From positions 4,588,001 to 4,652,000 of the forward strand of contig NZ_AP018823.1 of assembly GCF_002217795.2 (NCBI RefSeq): a DNA stretch of 64,000 nt, read 5' to 3'. The stretch comes from Aquitalea magnusonii. GTDB lineage: Bacteria; Pseudomonadota; Gammaproteobacteria; Burkholderiales; Chromobacteriaceae. The notes below the pieces were generated by a model. The model saw only the letters and a program-made list of their open reading frames with translations. It ran no database searches and had not been told where the DNA came from. A program made the position numbers and the translations under genes. Position 1 is the first letter of the stretch. Each line of letters opens with the position of its first letter. Positions 1 through 57,039 of this stretch are shown one piece after another.

Positions 1-1099
1 CGCCTACCAGCATCGGGTAAGCCACCCGCTCCTGGAAGCTGGGCACGGTCTTGCTGGCCACGTTGTTCAACAGGCCGATCTGCACATCCACCTTGTGGTC
101 GTAACCGCTGCAGGCGCGGGCTGCCACTTGGCGCCATGGCAGCCCCCGCACGCATACGCCGGGCTTGGGCAAGGCCCACAGCACCAGAGAGGCGTGATCG
201 GTCAGGTTGCGGCCCACCGCAGGCAAGGCCGCGCGCAGCGGAATACCGGCCTGCGCCAGTTGTGCCGGATCGCCCACTCCGGAGCGCTGCAGCAAGGCCG
301 CCGTGCCGATCGCTCCCGCGCACAACACCACTTGGCGCGCCCAATAGCGTAAGCGCCGGCCATCGACCACCGCGTCGACACCGCAAGCGCGGCACTCCTC
401 GAGCACGATGCGCGCGACCTCGGCGTCCGTCGCCACCGTGAGATTGGCGCGGCGCTGCGCCGGCTGCAGATAGGCGCGATAGACGTCCATCCGCTCGGCC
501 TGGCCGCGCACATTAGCCGGCACCAGGCCCACCGCCGGGTCTTCGCCCAGGTTAAGGTCATCGGAATAAGGTATGCCTTGGCGCTGGCAGGACCAGGCAA
601 ATGCCTGATCCAGCGGATGAATCTCGCCCGTGGCTGGTCGGCGGAGCCTCAGCGGGCCATCGCTGCCGTGCCATGCGTCGGCGCGGTCCACATCCTGCTC
701 CATCTTGCGGAACCACGGCAGAACCTTGTCCCAAGACCAAGTCGGGCACCCCATGTGCTCCCAGGCGGCGAAGTCGCTGGGGAAGGCCCTGAGCGCCACC
801 GCGCCATTGATGGCGGACGATCCGCCCATTACCTTGCCCAGGCTATAGGCAAACGGCCTCCGTCGTGCGCCGCGCTCGCCATCGCTGCGCAGATGGGCTT
901 GGTAGTCCCAGTTGTAGCCGCTTAGCACCAGGCGTGAGGCGTCGCGCAAGGGGCTGTCTTCGCGCGCCACGTCGGAGGCCGGTCCAGCCTCCAGCAGCAG
1001 CACGCGGTGCCTGCCGTTTTCCGACAGCCGCGCCGCCATCACGCAGCCGGCAGACCCGCCGCCTACCACGATGAAGTCGAACTCACCGCCGCTCGTCAT
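1..1099 (-). CDS. GMC-family FAD-dependent oxidoreductase, C-terminus cut by window edge
   Basis: I translated the minus strand from the ATG at 1099 to the window edge and found 366 uninterrupted codons with no stop. The N-terminus has an FAD-binding Rossmann motif (VVGGGSAG, residues 11-18) followed by VLLLEAG. GMC signature 1 is seen as GKVMGGSSAINGA and signature 2 as GAIGTAALLQRSGVG. The family oxidises alcohols or similar groups using FAD; the catalytic His/Asn lie in the missing C-terminal part. The start codon overlaps the stop of the original NRPS frame (ATGA at 1096-1099), so the two were one translationally coupled unit. Context suggests a tailoring oxidase for the peptide product; the actual substrate cannot be read from the sequence. 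Confidence 0.9.
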   Translation of the reverse strand, partial: MTSGGEFDFIVVGGGSAGCVMAARLSENGRHRVLLLEAGPASDVAREDSPLRDASRLVLSGYNWDYQAHLRSDGERGARRRPFAYSLGKVMGGSSAINGAVALRAFPSDFAAWEHMGCPTWSWDKVLPWFRKMEQDVDRADAWHGSDGPLRLRRPATGEIHPLDQAFAWSCQRQGIPYSDDLNLGEDPAVGLVPANVRGQAERMDVYRAYLQPAQRRANLTVATDAEVARIVLEECRACGVDAVVDGRRLRYWARQVVLCAGAIGTAALLQRSGVGDPAQLAQAGIPLRAALPAVGRNLTDHASLVLWALPKPGVCVRGLPWRQVAARACSGYDHKVDVQIGLLNNVASKTVPSFQERVAYPMLVG

Positions 1100-1223
1100 C
1101 GTTGCGCTCTGCAGCACGTCTCTTCCACCACAACATCTAGGCCATCCAGCAGCTTGGCGAAGTCGCGGATGCTAGCGTTCATGAACAGGCCTTCGATCAC
1201 GTCCTGTTCTCGCTCCGGCGTCA
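1096..1223 (-). other. detached C-terminal end of the NRPS carrier domain (out of frame)
   Basis: If one copy of the 20-bp duplication at 1224-1263 is removed, the NRPS frame continues here for about 42 codons and ends in TGA at 1096-1098, overlapping the start of the GMC oxidase. The restored residues read ALTPEREQDVIEGLF, then MNASIRDFAKLLDGL. These match the expected third and fourth helices of a peptidyl carrier domain. In the sequence as given this stretch is not translated with the NRPS. Confidence 0.85.
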
Positions 1224-4200
1224 GCGCGTAGCGGTCGCGCAGGGCGCGTAGCGGTCGCGCAGGGCGCTGAGCAAGCCCACCGCGTGCAGCGAATCGCCTC
1301 CGATATCGAAAAAGCCGTCCGTCACGCCAAAGTCTTCATGCCGGAGTTGCTTGCGCCACAGCGCCAGCAGCTCGTTTTCCAGTGTGCCTGCCGGCTCGGC
1401 ACTGGCCTCCGCCTCGTCGTGCTCCTGCCACGGCGGTGGCAAGGCCGCGCGGTTGATCTTGCCATTGGCGGTCAGCGGCATCTCGTCCACCGGCACCAGG
1501 TAGCTGGGCACCATATACGATGGCAGTTGCTTGCTGGCCAGCTCGCGCAGCCCATCCAGCAACGTTTGCCAATCGGCGTCGCCCTGCGGCGGCGTCTTCG
1601 CCGCCACATAGGCGACCAGGTGGCGCTGGCCGGTTTTGGTGTGGCGCGGCGCGTCCAGCACCACATGATTGGCCTCCGGGTGTTCCAGCAGGCAGGCCTC
1701 GACCTCACCTAGCTCTACCCGGTAGCCGTTGATCTTCACCTGGTTGTCCTCACGGCCCAGGATTTCGATCACGCCGTCTGCCAGATAACGGCCCAGATCC
1801 CCCGTCTTATATAAGCGCTCGCCGCTGTACGGATCGGCGATGAAGCGTTGCGCGGTCTTTTCGGCATCGGCCAGATAACCTTGGGCCACGCCGCAGCCCG
1901 CGATATAAAGCTCGCCGGTCACCCACTTCGGGCATGGGGCCAGCCAGTCGTTCAGCACATGGAAGCGCTGGTTGGCCAGCGGTTTGCCGTAGGGGATGCT
2001 GGTCCAAGACGGATCCACCCGCTCGATTGGGTGGCAGATGGACCAGATCGAACCTTCGGTTGCGCCGCCGAGGCTGATTAGCTCCACCGCCGGCAGGCAT
2101 TCGCGTATCCGGCCAGGCAGGTCGATGGGAATCCAGTCCCCGCTCATCAACACCAGCCGCAGCACTGTCTGTGCCAGCACATCTCCGCAGCGATCGGCCA
2201 GCGCCTTGACCGGTGCAGGCACGCTGTTCCAGATCGTCACCCTGTGCTGTATCAGCGTCTGGCACCAAGCCTGTGGATCGTTTGCGTTGGCGGCATCCTG
2301 GAACACCACGCGGCCGCCGGCCGCCAGTACGCCGAAGTAGTCGTAGACGGACAAATCGAAGCCGGCCGGCGCCACTGAGAACACCGCATCGTCGCGGTTC
2401 ACGCTAAAGCGGCGGTTGATGTCGAGCACAGTATTGGCGGCGTTGCGGTGACTGATCATCACGCCCTTGGGCTCGCCGGTGGAGCCGGAGGTGAAGATCA
2501 CGTAGGCCAGATCATCCAGCGACTGTAGTGAGGCTGCCTCCGGCCAGGCCTCAGCTGCCGGCACGCCTTCGACATTAATGCGCGGCAGCGCCGTGTGCGT
2601 TTCTTGCGGGTGGATGTCGCCGCGGCTCAGCAGCGCGCGCGGGGCGCAGCGGTGCAATAGGCTCTGACGGCGCTCTGCCGGCAAGGTCGGGTCTATTGCG
2701 ACGTAGGCAGCGCCGGCAATCAGCGTGCCCAGGATGGCGGCGATCAGCTCCGGCCCTTGCGGCAGCGATACCGCTATTATCTCGCCAGGCTTCACCTCGG
2801 TCTGGCTGTGGATGGCTTGCGCGATCGCGCCGGCGCGGCGGGCCAGCTCGCCAAAGCTCATACTGATGTCGCCCTGTTGCACTGCCACCGCGTTGGCCTG
2901 GCTGCTGGCGCGTTGCAGAACCAGCTCATGCAGCAGGGCCAGCGGCAGTGGCGTTTCCGTGGCGTTGGCGCGCTCGCGCTCCATCAGGTCCGCCGCCGGC
3001 AGCGCCGTCACCGCGCCGCGGACCGACCATACCTTCTCGTCGTCAAGGCAGCGCGCCAACAAGGCCATATAGCAATCGAGCATGTCCTCGACCATACCCG
3101 CGGGGAACAAGCCATCCACATGGTTCCAGTTCACGCGCACGATGTCCCCGTCTCGTGTCAGTTGGTTTTCCAGCCATACCTGCGGCGTCTGGTTGCGTTC
3201 GTACACCATGCGCGCGCCTGGCCAGCCGCCTTCCTCCACCAGCTCGTTCAGGTCGGCGTCCAGCATATTGCTGAACACTATCGGCGAACCGGATACGCGC
3301 TGGCCCTGTTGGCGCGCCTGTTCGCGCAACAACTGGATGCCGCTGTAACCGGCATGCCAGCGGTGGCAGAGCAAATCGGTTTGCACCTTGGCCAGCCGCT
3401 CGGCAAAGCTTTCGCCCGCCTCGGCGGTGATCGGTAGCAGCAGCGGTTGTAGAAAGTTGCCCGCGATATCGGCTACGCCATCGAAGTGCGGTCGGCGGCC
3501 AAACGTTGTCAGTGTCAACGTGAACGACTGCTGCTTGGACCACTGGCGCAAGGTTTCCACGTAGATGCCCAGCATCAGGCTCTCAGCGGTCAGACCCCTG
3601 CGGGCAGCCACGTCGCGCAAGGCGGCCAGCTTGTGCGCGCTCAACTCGCGGCTAGCGCGAACCGTATGCGGCGGCGTCAGATGCTCGGGGGAGGCGTCCA
3701 GCGGCAGCTCCGGCGCGGCGCTCATCGCGTCCAGTCGGTTCAGCCAGTATTGGCGATCGAGTGTGCCCCAGGGACCGGTTTGCCGTGCCGCTTCAGCCGC
3801 GCGATAGCTGGCGAAGGTGGCGTGTGCCGGCAACGCCGCCTGTGGTTGGCCGGAATAGGCGCGCCACCAGTCCCGCATGACGATGCGCACGCTGCGTAGA
3901 TCCAGCAACATCAGATCGAACAATAGATGCAGCCGGGTTACGCCATCCTCCAGCAAGGATGCCCGGATCTCAAACGGCGAAGCCTGATTCAAAGGCAGCA
4001 TGGTATGGCGCATGCGTTGCCGTTCCGCGTCCAGATGACGCATGCGCGCCGCCTTGTCCCAGGTGCGCGTGTCGGTCAAGGCTATGCGACAGTTGGGCGC
4101 GGCCACCACTACGGCCTGCTCGCCGCCGTCGCGGATTGCTGTCCGCAACACGGCATGGCGCTCCACCGTGCTGGCCAAGGCCTGCTCCAGGCGCGCCAGG

Positions 4201-4481
4201 TCAAGCGCTTCCACCTCCCACTCCTGATAGAAGGCGCTGGCAATGCCCCCCAGTTCCAGGCCGGGGTTGCGGCCTATCAGGTAGGCATACTGGATATCGG
4301 TCAGCGTGAAGGCAGTATTGTCCTGCTGCATCGGCTCTGGAGCGGCGTCCTCTCGTGGCAACCCACCCTGCAACAGTAAGCGGATTTGCTCCGCGCTGGC
4401 GGCTTCGTGCTCATCGTACCGCTCGTCTCCTGTCATGGCCGTCAAACCACAGGCCCGGATCGCTTCGAGGATGGTGTCCAT
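1221..4481 (-). CDS. NRPS module Cy-A(Cys)-PCP, C-terminus frameshifted
   Basis: A 1086-residue single-module synthetase. Residues about 55-490 form a condensation domain of the heterocyclisation type: the DxxxxDxxS motif replaces HHxxxDG (D189, D194, S197). An adenylation domain follows (about 510-985) with the core motif YVIFTSGSTGEPKG. Aligning its pocket to PheA gives D-L-Y-N-L-S-L-I-W, the known cysteine code, so the module should load Cys and cyclise it to a thiazoline. The carrier domain has GGDSL with the phosphopantetheine Ser at 1064. It is then truncated by the 20-bp duplication, losing helices III-IV, so carrier function is doubtful. There is no thioesterase. The start is supported by AAGGAG seven bases upstream. 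The first 50 residues match no domain I recognise. Confidence 0.93.
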   Translation of the reverse strand: MDTILEAIRACGLTAMTGDERYDEHEAASAEQIRLLLQGGLPREDAAPEPMQQDNTAFTLTDIQYAYLIGRNPGLELGGIASAFYQEWEVEALDLARLEQALASTVERHAVLRTAIRDGGEQAVVVAAPNCRIALTDTRTWDKAARMRHLDAERQRMRHTMLPLNQASPFEIRASLLEDGVTRLHLLFDLMLLDLRSVRIVMRDWWRAYSGQPQAALPAHATFASYRAAEAARQTGPWGTLDRQYWLNRLDAMSAAPELPLDASPEHLTPPHTVRASRELSAHKLAALRDVAARRGLTAESLMLGIYVETLRQWSKQQSFTLTLTTFGRRPHFDGVADIAGNFLQPLLLPITAEAGESFAERLAKVQTDLLCHRWHAGYSGIQLLREQARQQGQRVSGSPIVFSNMLDADLNELVEEGGWPGARMVYERNQTPQVWLENQLTRDGDIVRVNWNHVDGLFPAGMVEDMLDCYMALLARCLDDEKVWSVRGAVTALPAADLMERERANATETPLPLALLHELVLQRASSQANAVAVQQGDISMSFGELARRAGAIAQAIHSQTEVKPGEIIAVSLPQGPELIAAILGTLIAGAAYVAIDPTLPAERRQSLLHRCAPRALLSRGDIHPQETHTALPRINVEGVPAAEAWPEAASLQSLDDLAYVIFTSGSTGEPKGVMISHRNAANTVLDINRRFSVNRDDAVFSVAPAGFDLSVYDYFGVLAAGGRVVFQDAANANDPQAWCQTLIQHRVTIWNSVPAPVKALADRCGDVLAQTVLRLVLMSGDWIPIDLPGRIRECLPAVELISLGGATEGSIWSICHPIERVDPSWTSIPYGKPLANQRFHVLNDWLAPCPKWVTGELYIAGCGVAQGYLADAEKTAQRFIADPYSGERLYKTGDLGRYLADGVIEILGREDNQVKINGYRVELGEVEACLLEHPEANHVVLDAPRHTKTGQRHLVAYVAAKTPPQGDADWQTLLDGLRELASKQLPSYMVPSYLVPVDEMPLTANGKINRAALPPPWQEHDEAEASAEPAGTLENELLALWRKQLRHEDFGVTDGFFDIGGDSLHAVGLLSALRDRYAPCATATR
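1224..1263. repeat. perfect 20-bp tandem duplication causing a frameshift
   Basis: The unit GCGCGTAGCGGTCGCGCAGG occurs twice head to tail (1224-1243 and 1244-1263). Twenty is not a multiple of three, so the extra copy shifts the minus-strand NRPS frame inside the carrier domain. The protein then ends eight residues after Tyr-Ala with the aberrant tail PCATATR. Confidence 0.95.
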
Positions 4482-4520: not shown

Positions 4521-5767
4521 CTACAGTTTCTGCGTCGTCAGCTGGCCTGCGGACACGCCGCGCATACACGCCTGCATGGCCAGCAATAGCGCCACCACCA
4601 CGAAGGAAACTGCTGTGGCTCCCAATGCTCAGGCACAGCCCTCAACCGCATCCGTCAGCAATGCGGCAACCGAGCGGCAACCGACATGGTGGTGGCCATG
4701 CCCAAGCTCAGCCCATGGTTTCATGGCGCTCTTCCTTACTCCTCCCGCCAAGCCGGATTGACGAGATGTCAATTGGCAACTCGCTGGTGGCGATGACGGC
4801 TGAGCTTGCGAACATCATTGTGGTGCCGATGGGGAGCGTGATCAGTCCTGGCAGCAGATCCGTCAGAGAGGCAGAGTGCCGATCCAGCCCGGCCAGCAAC
4901 GTCAGACCAGCGGTGTCTATCAGCAGGCCACCATGCGACAAGCGGGCGGCACGCCCAAGCGTCCGGTCAGCGGAGCGGTTGTGGCTGGAGGCGATCAAGG
5001 CCAGCAGATAGGGCAAACAGCCCAGGGTGGCCCACCGTGGCGAGGCGGCGTGCCGCTCCACCATCAAGAAAGCCAATAGCAAGACCGCGCCAACCGGCAA
5101 CGGCAATATCGCGCCGCGAGAGAGCCAGCCGGCTTCGCCGGTCAAGATCAGGCCATCGCTGGAGAGAGAAATGCCGATCGTTGCCAGGACCGCTCCACCC
5201 AGATACAACGCTTTGCTCCCGCGCGGTTCAGGCGAGGCAGGCAGCCAGACGCCCGGCACCAACAAGGCGCAGACGCTGACCGCCAGCGGTACTATGAATC
5301 TGACGCCAGGACAGCCAGGTGATGATCACGCCGGAGATCACCGGGCTGGCGCTGGCTCCAAGTACGGAAACGTGGCCCCAACTCGCCATAGCGCGGCTGC
5401 AAGCCGCCGGTTCCGCACAGCCGCCGCGCAGCAAGGACAGCGCAGCCGGAGCCTCCCTGAACGCGCCCATGCGCTGCACAAAGCGCATCGCGATCAGCAT
5501 GAGGAAGCTGGGCGACAATGCAGCGGCGGCTGAGGCTGCGCCAAACACCAACAGTCCCGTGATGAAGATCGGCTTACTGCTGATATTGGGCAGCGGCACC
5601 GCTACCAAGCTGATGGCAAAGATCAGCGTTGCCCGCAGGGCGGTTAATGTGGAAAAAGCTCTGCCCTGCCGTGCAGCATGGGCATTAGCCGCCCCGCCAT
5701 CTGGTGAACTCACGACACACTCCTCAGATAAAAACAAGCGCACTTCAATGCGATGAAAACCGGCCAA
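4521..5767 (-). pseudogene. decayed MFS drug-efflux transporter (EmrB/QacA DHA2-like)
   Basis: Two overlapping reading frames carry fragments of one 14-TM MFS exporter. The upstream frame (5767 to 5228) has pieces such as LLVFGAASAAAALSPSFLML and APAALSLLRGG, like the usual LIAARALQGLGAALLAPAALSLL region. A frameshift near 5290 leads to a second frame (5265 to 4708) with GGAVLATIGISLSSDGLIL and VVLLLAFLMVERHAASP-like helices. A third fragment with a late hydrophobic helix (VSFVVVALLLAMQA) ends at a TAG at 4521. Transmembrane segments are missing in several places, so no functional carrier is possible. It lies just upstream of the NRPS on the same strand and was probably its export pump. Confidence 0.8.
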
Positions 5768-6356: not shown

Positions 6357-6403
6357 AAATGCAGGTGCTTCTCACGAATGCCTGCTGATGCCAATTACCT
6401 GCA

Positions 6404-6432
6404 TTGACAACTTACTTACTAGTAAGTATTGT
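6404..6432 (+). promoter_or_regulatory. sigma-70 promoter with embedded 16-bp palindromic operator, upstream of fadH
   Basis: A consensus -35 box TTGACA (6404-6409) is followed after exactly 17 bp by TATTGT (6427-6432). The spacer contains the perfect palindrome TACTTACTAGTAAGTA (6413-6428), flanked by GACAA on the left and TTGTC on the right. A dimeric repressor bound here would cover the RNA polymerase site. The form suits TetR-family regulators, but no regulator gene is adjacent, so the protein is unknown. Confidence 0.7.
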
Positions 6433-6478
6433 CGAGTGACAATAATGCATGCCCTGCCGGCAAATGACCGGCGGCTGA

Positions 6479-8548
<2,070 letters not shown>

Positions 8549-34256: not shown

Positions 34257-34332
34257 GGGTCGGTAGCTCAGCCGGTAGAGCAGCGGACTTTTAATCCGTT
34301 GGTCGCGAGTTCGAATCTCGCCCGACCCACCA
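34257..34332 (+). tRNA. tRNA-Lys (TTT), copy 1
   Basis: 76 bases with encoded CCA. Acceptor GGGTCGG pairs with CCGACCC, anticodon loop ACTTTTAAT gives TTT, and the T arm is GCGAGTTCGAATCTCGC. Confidence 0.98.
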
Positions 34333-34343
34333 ATGTTTTGCCC

Positions 34344-34419
34344 GGGTTGTTAGCTCAGTTGGTAGAGCAGCGGACTCTTAATCCGTAGGTCGAGTGTTCG
34401 AGCCACTCACAACCCACCA
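34344..34419 (+). tRNA. tRNA-Lys (CTT), copy 1
   Basis: 76 bases with encoded CCA. Acceptor GGGTTGT pairs with ACAACCC, anticodon CTT in GGACTCTTAATCC, T arm GAGTGTTCGAGCCACTC. Confidence 0.97.
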
Positions 34420-34448
34420 GTTTTCCGGTTTTGCCGTCAAGCAAGATC

Positions 34449-34524
34449 GGGTCGGTAGCTCAGCCGGTAGAGCAGCGGACTTTTAATCCGTTGGTCGCGA
34501 GTTCGAATCTCGCCCGACCCACCA
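34449..34524 (+). tRNA. tRNA-Lys (TTT), copy 2
   Basis: Identical to copy 1 at every position I compared; same acceptor, anticodon TTT and encoded CCA. Confidence 0.98.
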
Positions 34525-34536
34525 AACGTTTTGCCC

Positions 34537-34612
34537 GGGTTGTTAGCTCAGTTGGTAGAGCAGCGGACTCTTAATCCGTAGGTCGAGTGTTCGAGCCACT
34601 CACAACCCACCA
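34537..34612 (+). tRNA. tRNA-Lys (CTT), copy 2
   Basis: Identical to copy 1 of the CTT gene as far as I can compare; encoded CCA. Confidence 0.97.
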
Positions 34613-34640
34613 GTTTCCGGTTTTGCCGTCAAGCAAGATC

Positions 34641-34716
34641 GGGTCGGTAGCTCAGCCGGTAGAGCAGCGGACTTTTAATCCGTTGGTCGCGAGTTCGAAT
34701 CTCGCCCGACCCACCA
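34641..34716 (+). tRNA. tRNA-Lys (TTT), copy 3
   Basis: Same sequence as copies 1 and 2, encoded CCA; starts 192 bases after copy 2. Confidence 0.98.
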
Positions 34717-34727
34717 CCGTTTTGCCC

Positions 34728-34803
34728 GGGTTGTTAGCTCAGTTGGTAGAGCAGCGGACTCTTAATCCGTAGGTCGAGTGTTCGAGCCACTCACAACCCA
34801 CCA
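34728..34803 (+). tRNA. tRNA-Lys (CTT), copy 3
   Basis: Same sequence as the other CTT copies, encoded CCA; last member before the array terminator. Confidence 0.97.
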
Positions 34804-56614: not shown

Positions 56615-56800
56615 GAAACGGTCCTCGATGAAGTCAGAGAAACACGTTTCAGGGCGTGAAAATGCGCTGCCGCATCGATCAGCATGCAGCCAGCGCAGGG
56701 CGCAATGGCGTGCGCGGACCCTGCCATGGCAAAGCCCGGCACCGCATGGCACCCGGACAGAACGACGCCAGCCCGGCATGGCCAGGCTGACGCTGCTGTC

Positions 56801-56946
56801 ATCTTCTTTCATCCGGACTATGACCGTCGGCTCTGGCATCGCACCAGATCTGCTGACCCTTTTTCTTCAGAAAAAGGCGCTCGCGGGCTCGGCCTGCACA
56901 GGCAGGCCATACCGCCGGTGGGGAGTTTCACCCCGCCCTGAAGACG
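56801..56946 (-). promoter_or_regulatory. FMN riboswitch (RFN element) controlling ribB
   Basis: Read on minus, the conserved RFN blocks are in order: GGGGTGAAACTCCCCACCGG, then GGCGGTA, the GC variable arm, GGTGCGATGCCAGAGCCGAC, and GGTCATAGTCCGGATGAAAG. The outer P1 stem is TCTTC with GAAGA. Between 56614 and 56801 (about 190 bases) I see GC-rich hairpins but no U tract, so control may be of translation. FMN is expected to shut ribB off. Confidence 0.95.
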
Positions 56947-57039
56947 TAGCACAGGCCGCGCAATACGCATCGGCCAGCGGCCAGTATAACGCAGTGGTAA
57001 GATGGGCGGATTCGAGATTCAGCCACCACGGCAGTACCC

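What the first reader, a model, noticed from the sequence alone, without database searches (positions are those of the whole stretch)
1096..1263. Exact 20-bp tandem duplication breaks the NRPS carrier domain; possible slippage switch
Two perfect copies of a 20-base unit lie in the PCP coding part. Removing one restores 42 codons of normal carrier-domain sequence, and the restored stop overlaps the start codon of the GMC oxidase. So the shift is recent and could revert by replication slippage, giving on/off variation of peptide synthesis. It would also uncouple the oxidase start from NRPS translation. A sequencing or assembly error is the main alternative.
Basis: seen in the sequence. Interest (0 to 1): 0.75.

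Follow-up and report, generated by a model that had tools for sequence, protein, structure and literature searches.

The report
Broken antibiotic gene in decaying cluster
A 20-letter stutter appears to have recently broken the main enzyme gene of a holomycin-type antibiotic cluster in a bacterium probably of the genus Aquitalea, but other genes of the same cluster broke earlier, so this looks like ordinary gene decay rather than an on/off switch.

Summary
Two exact 20-bp copies lie at window 1224-1243 and 1244-1263, the only exact tandem duplication of period 12-60 in the window. They shift the frame inside the carrier (PCP) domain of a Cy-A-PCP synthetase.

The gene is the HlmE/HolA/Hom7 homologue of a holomycin-type (dithiolopyrrolone) cluster. 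It sits on an island not found in the other sampled genomes of its genus (probably Aquitalea).

The switch reading is weak. The cluster's exporter, N-acyltransferase and serine acetyltransferase genes are also wrecked by many indels and have drifted at a neutral-like rate. The synthetase is as constrained as the unbroken genes, so its break is recent.

Best explanation: replication slippage between two GCGC words made a recent loss-of-function mutation in an already decaying cluster. Reversion or polymorphism cannot be excluded without reads or sister strains. More unusual is the order of decay: acylation, export and precursor supply were lost early, while the core scaffold genes stayed under purifying selection until late.

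The parts
1221..4481 (-). Cy-A-PCP non-ribosomal peptide synthetase, HlmE/HolA/Hom7 homologue, truncated to 1086 aa by the frameshift
   Evidence: Pfam Condensation, AMP-binding, AMP-binding_C, PP-binding; 86% to C. alticapitis over 1-1079; 93% to P0002; one homologue is named holomycin synthetase HlmE
1224..1243 (.). copy 1 of the exact 20-bp tandem duplication
1244..1263 (.). copy 2 of the exact 20-bp tandem duplication (period-20 match continues to 1267)
   Evidence: one unit only in L004 and L082
1096..1251 (-). out-of-frame remainder of the PCP domain, still open and still like the relatives' C-terminus; native stop substituted, next stop overlaps an ATG of the GMC gene
1..1117 (-). GMC oxidoreductase (HlmD/HolB/Hom6 homologue), unbroken; continues beyond the window to genome 4587531
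   Evidence: Pfam GMC_oxred_N and GMC_oxred_C; no indels against two relatives
4524..5713 (-). remnant of the cluster's MFS exporter gene: pieces in three frames, deletions of 108 and 132 bp and small frameshifting indels
4663..4684 (.). exact 11-bp tandem duplication inside the MFS remnant, absent from both relatives
6403..6472 (.). right copy of a 70-bp imperfect direct repeat (83%) that bounds the island; the left copy is outside the window at genome 4581385-4581454
6491..8548 (+). 2,4-dienoyl-CoA reductase (fadH), first clear host gene right of the island

Best explanation
A recent loss-of-function mutation in a decaying, probably laterally acquired holomycin-type (dithiolopyrrolone) cluster. 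During replication the new strand slipped between two GCGC words spaced 20 bases apart in the synthetase gene and copied the stretch twice. The 20-base gain shifts the frame, so the synthetase loses the last 36 residues of its carrier-domain end. Without a folded carrier domain the assembly line should be dead. Shown: the duplication, the shift, the single unit and the GCGC words in two relatives, the cluster's gene content, and the older wreckage of exporter, N-acyltransferase and serine acetyltransferase genes. Inferred: slippage as the mechanism, loss of enzyme activity, the product class, and that the island came by transfer.
For: Duplication confirmed and not chance. Both DNA relatives carry one unit flanked by GCGC...GCGC at 20-base spacing. 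Gene content matches the hol/hom/hlm table of PMC3826145. Own MFS, GNAT and SAT genes have many indels; GMC, TE, ACAD, PPCDC and ArsR-rhodanese have none and globin has one in-frame deletion. Own-branch amino-acid:synonymous changes: MFS+GNAT+SAT 153:58 (ratio 2.64, within the neutral expectation of 1.7-2.9); NRPS 52:81; six unbroken genes 79:143. NRPS vs unbroken p=0.57, trio vs NRPS p=1.4e-9. 2 of 50 own-unique NRPS changes depart from a residue that at least 70% of 60 homologues share, although 42% of all sites are that conserved. The purC-fadH interval is 2.3-4.4 kb in 8 of 8 relatives with both genes on one contig, 15.9 kb here; 5 of the 8 were aligned and lack the island.
Against: No reads and no second strain of this species could be read, so a mixed population or an assembly error is not excluded. 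The unbroken core genes are only mildly relaxed on this branch (79:143 against 79:250 in C. alticapitis, p=0.004), so most of the cluster does not look long dead. In C. alticapitis, where the trio is unbroken, it also evolves somewhat faster than the other genes (48:88 against 160:450, p=0.035), so part of the trio's excess is intrinsic. SAT (41:10) and GNAT (24:7) alone exceed the neutral range, which points to some alignment noise. Loss of activity rests on general knowledge of carrier domains.
Confidence: 0.85

Rival explanations
1. Slippage switch: the two-copy form is an off state that reverts at useful frequency, giving on/off variation of synthesis.
For: An exact tandem repeat with 24 matched bases can lose a unit by slippage (recalled). 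Reversible sequence duplications in pneumococcal capsule genes are a precedent (passages of PMC4243769 citing Waite 2001 and 2003; originals not read). The synthetase was under selection until recently.
Against: Three further cluster genes are broken by several lesions each. Neither of two DNA relatives has more than one unit. Only two copies, unlike the multi-copy tracts usual in contingency loci (recalled). The native stop has also been substituted.
Confidence: 0.06
2. Sequencing or assembly error: the genome has one copy.
For: No raw reads available. Another genome in this set (G016) ends in a stretch that repeats an earlier one with 42 gap openings and no mismatches, so indel errors do occur in public assemblies. 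A crude look for frameshifts outside the island was inconclusive.
Against: The G016 differences are almost all single-base gaps (42 openings, 44 gap letters), not an exact 20-bp duplication flanked by microhomology. The host is a single 4.85-Mb contig rated 100% complete. Three neighbouring genes are decayed by lesions of many sizes plus neutral-like substitutions, which such error does not produce.
Confidence: 0.07
3. Adaptive shutdown: once exporter and N-acyltransferase were lost the pathway became costly or self-toxic, and the synthetase knock-out was selected rather than drifting in.
For: Order of events (trio first, synthetase last). PMC3826145 describes N-acylation of holothin as a late step and, beside the dithiol oxidase HlmI, speaks of increased sensitivity toward holomycin (passages, the second cut at its start).
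Against: The core stayed constrained for most of the branch after the trio was lost, which argues against strong immediate toxicity. Selection on a single mutation cannot be tested here.
Confidence: 0.15

Closest known systems
hol cluster (holothin part of thiomarinol) of Pseudoalteromonas SANK 73390 and hom cluster of Yersinia ruckeri; hlm of Streptomyces clavuligerus
   Same: Cy-A-T synthetase, GMC oxidase, thioesterase, acyl-CoA dehydrogenase, N-acyltransferase, globin and PPC-decarboxylase-like flavoprotein, in the order that the letters HolA to HolG suggest (table in PMC3826145, its figure not seen). As the review says of the two Gram-negative clusters, no dithiol oxidase of the thioredoxin-reductase kind was seen among the ORFs scanned
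   Different: Here the MFS, N-acyltransferase and an added serine acetyltransferase gene are wrecked and the synthetase is frameshifted; an ArsR-rhodanese gene and a PPTase gene lie alongside
Pneumococcal cap3A / cap8E / tts duplication phase variation (as cited in PMC4243769)
   Same: A spontaneous tandem duplication inside a biosynthetic gene turns the pathway off and is in principle reversible
   Different: There reversion was reported; here there is no evidence of reversion and other genes of the cluster are broken too

Membership tests
holomycin-type (dithiolopyrrolone) cluster | single synthetase with cyclisation, adenylation and thiolation domains | tested here: met
   DxxxxD motif of a cyclisation domain read by eye (motif recalled); carrier domain truncated in this genome
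holomycin-type (dithiolopyrrolone) cluster | GMC oxidase, thioesterase, acyl-CoA dehydrogenase, globin and PPC-decarboxylase homologues in the hol order | tested here: met
   against the table in PMC3826145; order inferred from the HolA-HolG lettering
holomycin-type (dithiolopyrrolone) cluster | unbroken N-acyltransferase and exporter genes | tested here: not met
   both wrecked in this genome, unbroken in L004 and L082; the review's table lists no MFS gene for Pseudoalteromonas, so the exporter is not universal
holomycin-type (dithiolopyrrolone) cluster | production of a dithiolopyrrolone | not testable with these tools
   no chemistry available
phase-variable (contingency) locus | copy number varies between close relatives | tested here: inconclusive
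   0 of 2 DNA relatives, both of another genus, has more than one unit; no conspecific DNA could be read
phase-variable (contingency) locus | mixed lengths within one culture | not testable with these tools
   needs raw reads or colonies
phase-variable (contingency) locus | the switch alone decides the pathway's state | tested here: not met
   three further broken genes in the cluster

The most novel reading that the evidence does not exclude
Staged decay with a retained core: this lineage lost acylation, export and dedicated cysteine supply early, yet kept the scaffold enzymes under purifying selection for most of the remaining time. It may have made an unexported or differently acylated pyrrothine for a use other than a secreted antibiotic, until the synthetase was hit, possibly still as a polymorphism in the species.
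Probability: 0.2. Interest if true: 0.5.

Novelty: new member of a known kind. Interest (0 to 1): 0.27.

Why it matters
It adds a holomycin-type cluster in a second genus of its family, beside the two genomes of the Chromobacterium alticapitis genus found here, and shows the order in which it is being lost. That gives a natural test of which parts of a dithiolopyrrolone pathway are worth keeping. It also warns that a lone frameshift beside otherwise open genes can look like a switch until the neighbouring genes are compared with unbroken relatives. In the held papers none holds both dithiolopyrrolone and Aquitalea. The 8 papers holding dithiolopyrrolone and Chromobacterium and the 11 holding holomycin, Chromobacterium and gene cluster were seen as listings only, except passages of PMC3826145 and PMC11317636; in the passages shown, Chromobacterium appears for FK228/romidepsin and DepH. 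So I cannot say that no paper reports such a cluster in Chromobacterium.

Tried and rejected
A second, heavily broken NRPS copy in G016 first looked like parallel decay. The last 7.8 kb of that contig repeat the stretch at 23.6-31.3 kb from the contig's start with 0 mismatches and 42 gap openings, and the copy stops at the contig's end inside a gene. It is most likely an untrimmed, uncorrected overlap of a circular chromosome, not a second copy. Rejected.

A relative-rate excess of own over P0002 (50 to 8 unique amino-acid changes) looked like relaxation of the synthetase alone. P0002 is 99.7% identical to the G016 protein, whose branch is short at silent sites too, so I used per-gene ratios instead.

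The thioesterase rows (wrong frame; partly overlapping the GMC gene) were dropped; the row is used. The 159-aa frame near genome 4583000-4583500 (Ka/Ks 0.95) is not taken as a gene. The PPTase rows were not used because the register was uncertain.

A crude look for frameshifts in about 19.7 kb outside the island against G006 and G007 gave mostly compensating gap pairs plus a few that were not balanced inside crudely picked ORFs; inconclusive, not used as evidence for the assembly's quality.

Paper searches on slippage and phase variation gave nothing directly usable. Indel sizes and positions in MFS, GNAT and SAT depend on the alignment; searches agree on the picture but not on every gap in GNAT and SAT.

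Full report
What is there. Two exact copies of a 20-base unit stand head to tail at 1224-1243 and 1244-1263, the period-20 match running to 1267. A scan for exact tandem duplications of period 8-60 found 8 in the window. Only this one has a period of 12 or more; 200 local triplet shuffles gave none above period 12. Longer periods were not scanned that way. The next longest, an 11-base duplication at 4663-4684, lies in another broken gene of the same cluster.

What gene it is. The minus-strand frame 1221-4481 encodes condensation-like, adenylation and carrier domains. The 120 listed of 223 homologues of the C. alticapitis protein include one named holomycin synthetase HlmE and proteins of Xenorhabdus, Photobacterium galatheae and Algicola. 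Downstream in the host genome follow a GMC oxidase, thioesterase, acyl-CoA dehydrogenase, a GNAT remnant, globin, a serine acetyltransferase remnant, a PPC-decarboxylase-like flavoprotein, an ArsR-rhodanese gene and a phosphopantetheinyl transferase; upstream is an MFS remnant. From synthetase to flavoprotein this is the order that the letters HolA-HolG suggest in the table of the review PMC3826145 (passages seen), with the serine acetyltransferase added. The product is therefore most likely a dithiolopyrrolone; this is an inference from gene content.

Host and place. The window is bases 4588001-4652000 of a single 4,852,135-base contig. The genus is probably Aquitalea: the fadH neighbour's hit P0189, named uncultured Aquitalea sp., has a longest contig of the same length, 352812, as contig C1 of the same-genus genome G009. 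Of 10 genomes of the genus searched, own included, only the host has a full-length match; the other nine (one of them, G008, 61% complete) match only stretches within residues 531-1041, best E 1.6e-21. In 8 of 8 relatives with purC and fadH on one contig the two genes lie about 2.3-4.4 kb apart, against 15.9 kb in the host. Five of these were aligned and lack the island. A 70-bp direct repeat, 83% identical, bounds it.

Transfer or not. Island G+C is 0.626 and the window right of the island 0.608; the clusters of C. alticapitis and G016 have 0.680 and 0.665. But in C. alticapitis the cluster is also richer than its left flank (0.595; G016's surroundings 0.635), so the figures do not simply name a donor. 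Host-only substitutions in six unbroken stretches, synthetase included, run 294 GC-to-AT against 45 AT-to-GC (C. alticapitis 244 to 288, G016 76 to 34). Acquisition followed by drift towards host composition fits, but is not proven; loss of the island in the sister genomes is not excluded.

Relatives. In 61 genomes of the family, 16 have some match at E<=1e-100 but 3 have a clear orthologue (86% or more): the host, G011 (100% to C. alticapitis, so that species or one very near) and G016. All 11 proteins compared run without gaps in G016, apart from up to 3 residues at an end. A search of 300 evenly drawn genomes of the order with the GMC protein found only the host; since the query's own source did not turn up it was not in that sample, so this says little about how rare the cluster is. 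The second NRPS copy listed for G016 is most likely an assembly artefact.

The break. Both relatives have the 20-base unit once, between two GCGC words spaced 20 bases apart. Slippage at such short repeats is a usual source of tandem duplications (recalled). The out-of-frame remainder still matches the C. alticapitis C-terminus at 88%. The relatives' stop codon, which overlaps their GMC start, is substituted here, so the frame runs 6 codons further to a stop overlapping the next ATG. The protein keeps the GGDSL stretch but lacks the residues that match 1080-1115 of the relatives.

Timing. Against C. alticapitis the synthetase has one internal indel, the duplication, and GMC none. In the three-way comparison TE, ACAD, PPCDC and ArsR-rhodanese have none and globin one in-frame deletion of 30 bases, while MFS, GNAT and SAT have many, several frameshifting. 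On the host branch amino-acid to silent changes are 153:58 for those three together (MFS 88:41, GNAT 24:7, SAT 41:10; neutral expectation 1.7-2.9), 52:81 for the synthetase and 79:143 for six unbroken genes. Synthetase and unbroken genes do not differ (p=0.57); the trio differs from both (p=1.4e-9 and 1.3e-14). Of 50 host-specific synthetase changes 2 depart from a residue shared by at least 70% of 60 homologues (the first 60 of length 1060-1160 in the list), although 42% of sites are that conserved; for C. alticapitis it is 0 of 79. So the exporter, acyltransferase and serine acetyltransferase were lost early and the synthetase late.

Results that cut the other way. The unbroken genes are somewhat relaxed compared with C. 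alticapitis (79:143 against 79:250, p=0.004), and the synthetase too (52:81 against 81:200, p=0.043). In C. alticapitis, where it is unbroken, the trio also evolves faster than the other seven genes (48:88 against 160:450, p=0.035), so part of its excess is intrinsic. The ratios of SAT and GNAT lie above the neutral range, which suggests alignment noise. The three-sequence comparison is unrooted, so the host branch may include part of a donor's history.

Verdict on the switch. A two-copy 20-base repeat can revert, and reversible duplications are described for pneumococcal capsule genes (passages of PMC4243769; the original papers were not read). A switch of a normal antibiotic pathway is unlikely; polymorphism of the duplication in the species remains untested.

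What is more interesting than the repeat. The core scaffold genes stayed constrained after acylation, export and precursor supply were gone. Host-only silent changes per codon are of similar size in broken and unbroken genes (0.05-0.11, from the counts), so recent replacement of the core alone is not indicated. The lineage may have used an unexported or differently acylated pyrrothine. I give this 0.2.

Noticed in passing
window 6403-6472 and genome 4581385-4581454 (outside the window): A 70-bp imperfect direct repeat (83%), with a palindrome that by eye looks like a regulator's operator, bounds the 13-kb island; in the aligned relatives one stretch in front of fadH matches both copies. How the island entered is open.
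   Followed up: partly
window 4663-4684: Exact 11-bp tandem duplication inside the MFS remnant, absent from both relatives: a second slippage-type lesion in the same cluster.
   Followed up: partly
L083 (G016 C1:4266001-4279774): The last 7.8 kb of the contig repeat C1:23586-31339 with 0 mismatches and 42 gap openings: most likely an untrimmed, uncorrected circular overlap that mimics a decayed second gene cluster.
   Followed up: yes
window 34257-34803: Six tRNA-Lys genes as three tandem 192-bp units, each with anticodons ttt and ctt.
   Followed up: no
window 56797-56949 (minus): FMN riboswitch, 112.6 bits.
   Followed up: no
window 3906-3908 (residue 192 of the synthetase): Host-specific F192L inside the presumed cyclisation-domain motif, at a site where at least 90% of 60 homologues have F.
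   Followed up: no
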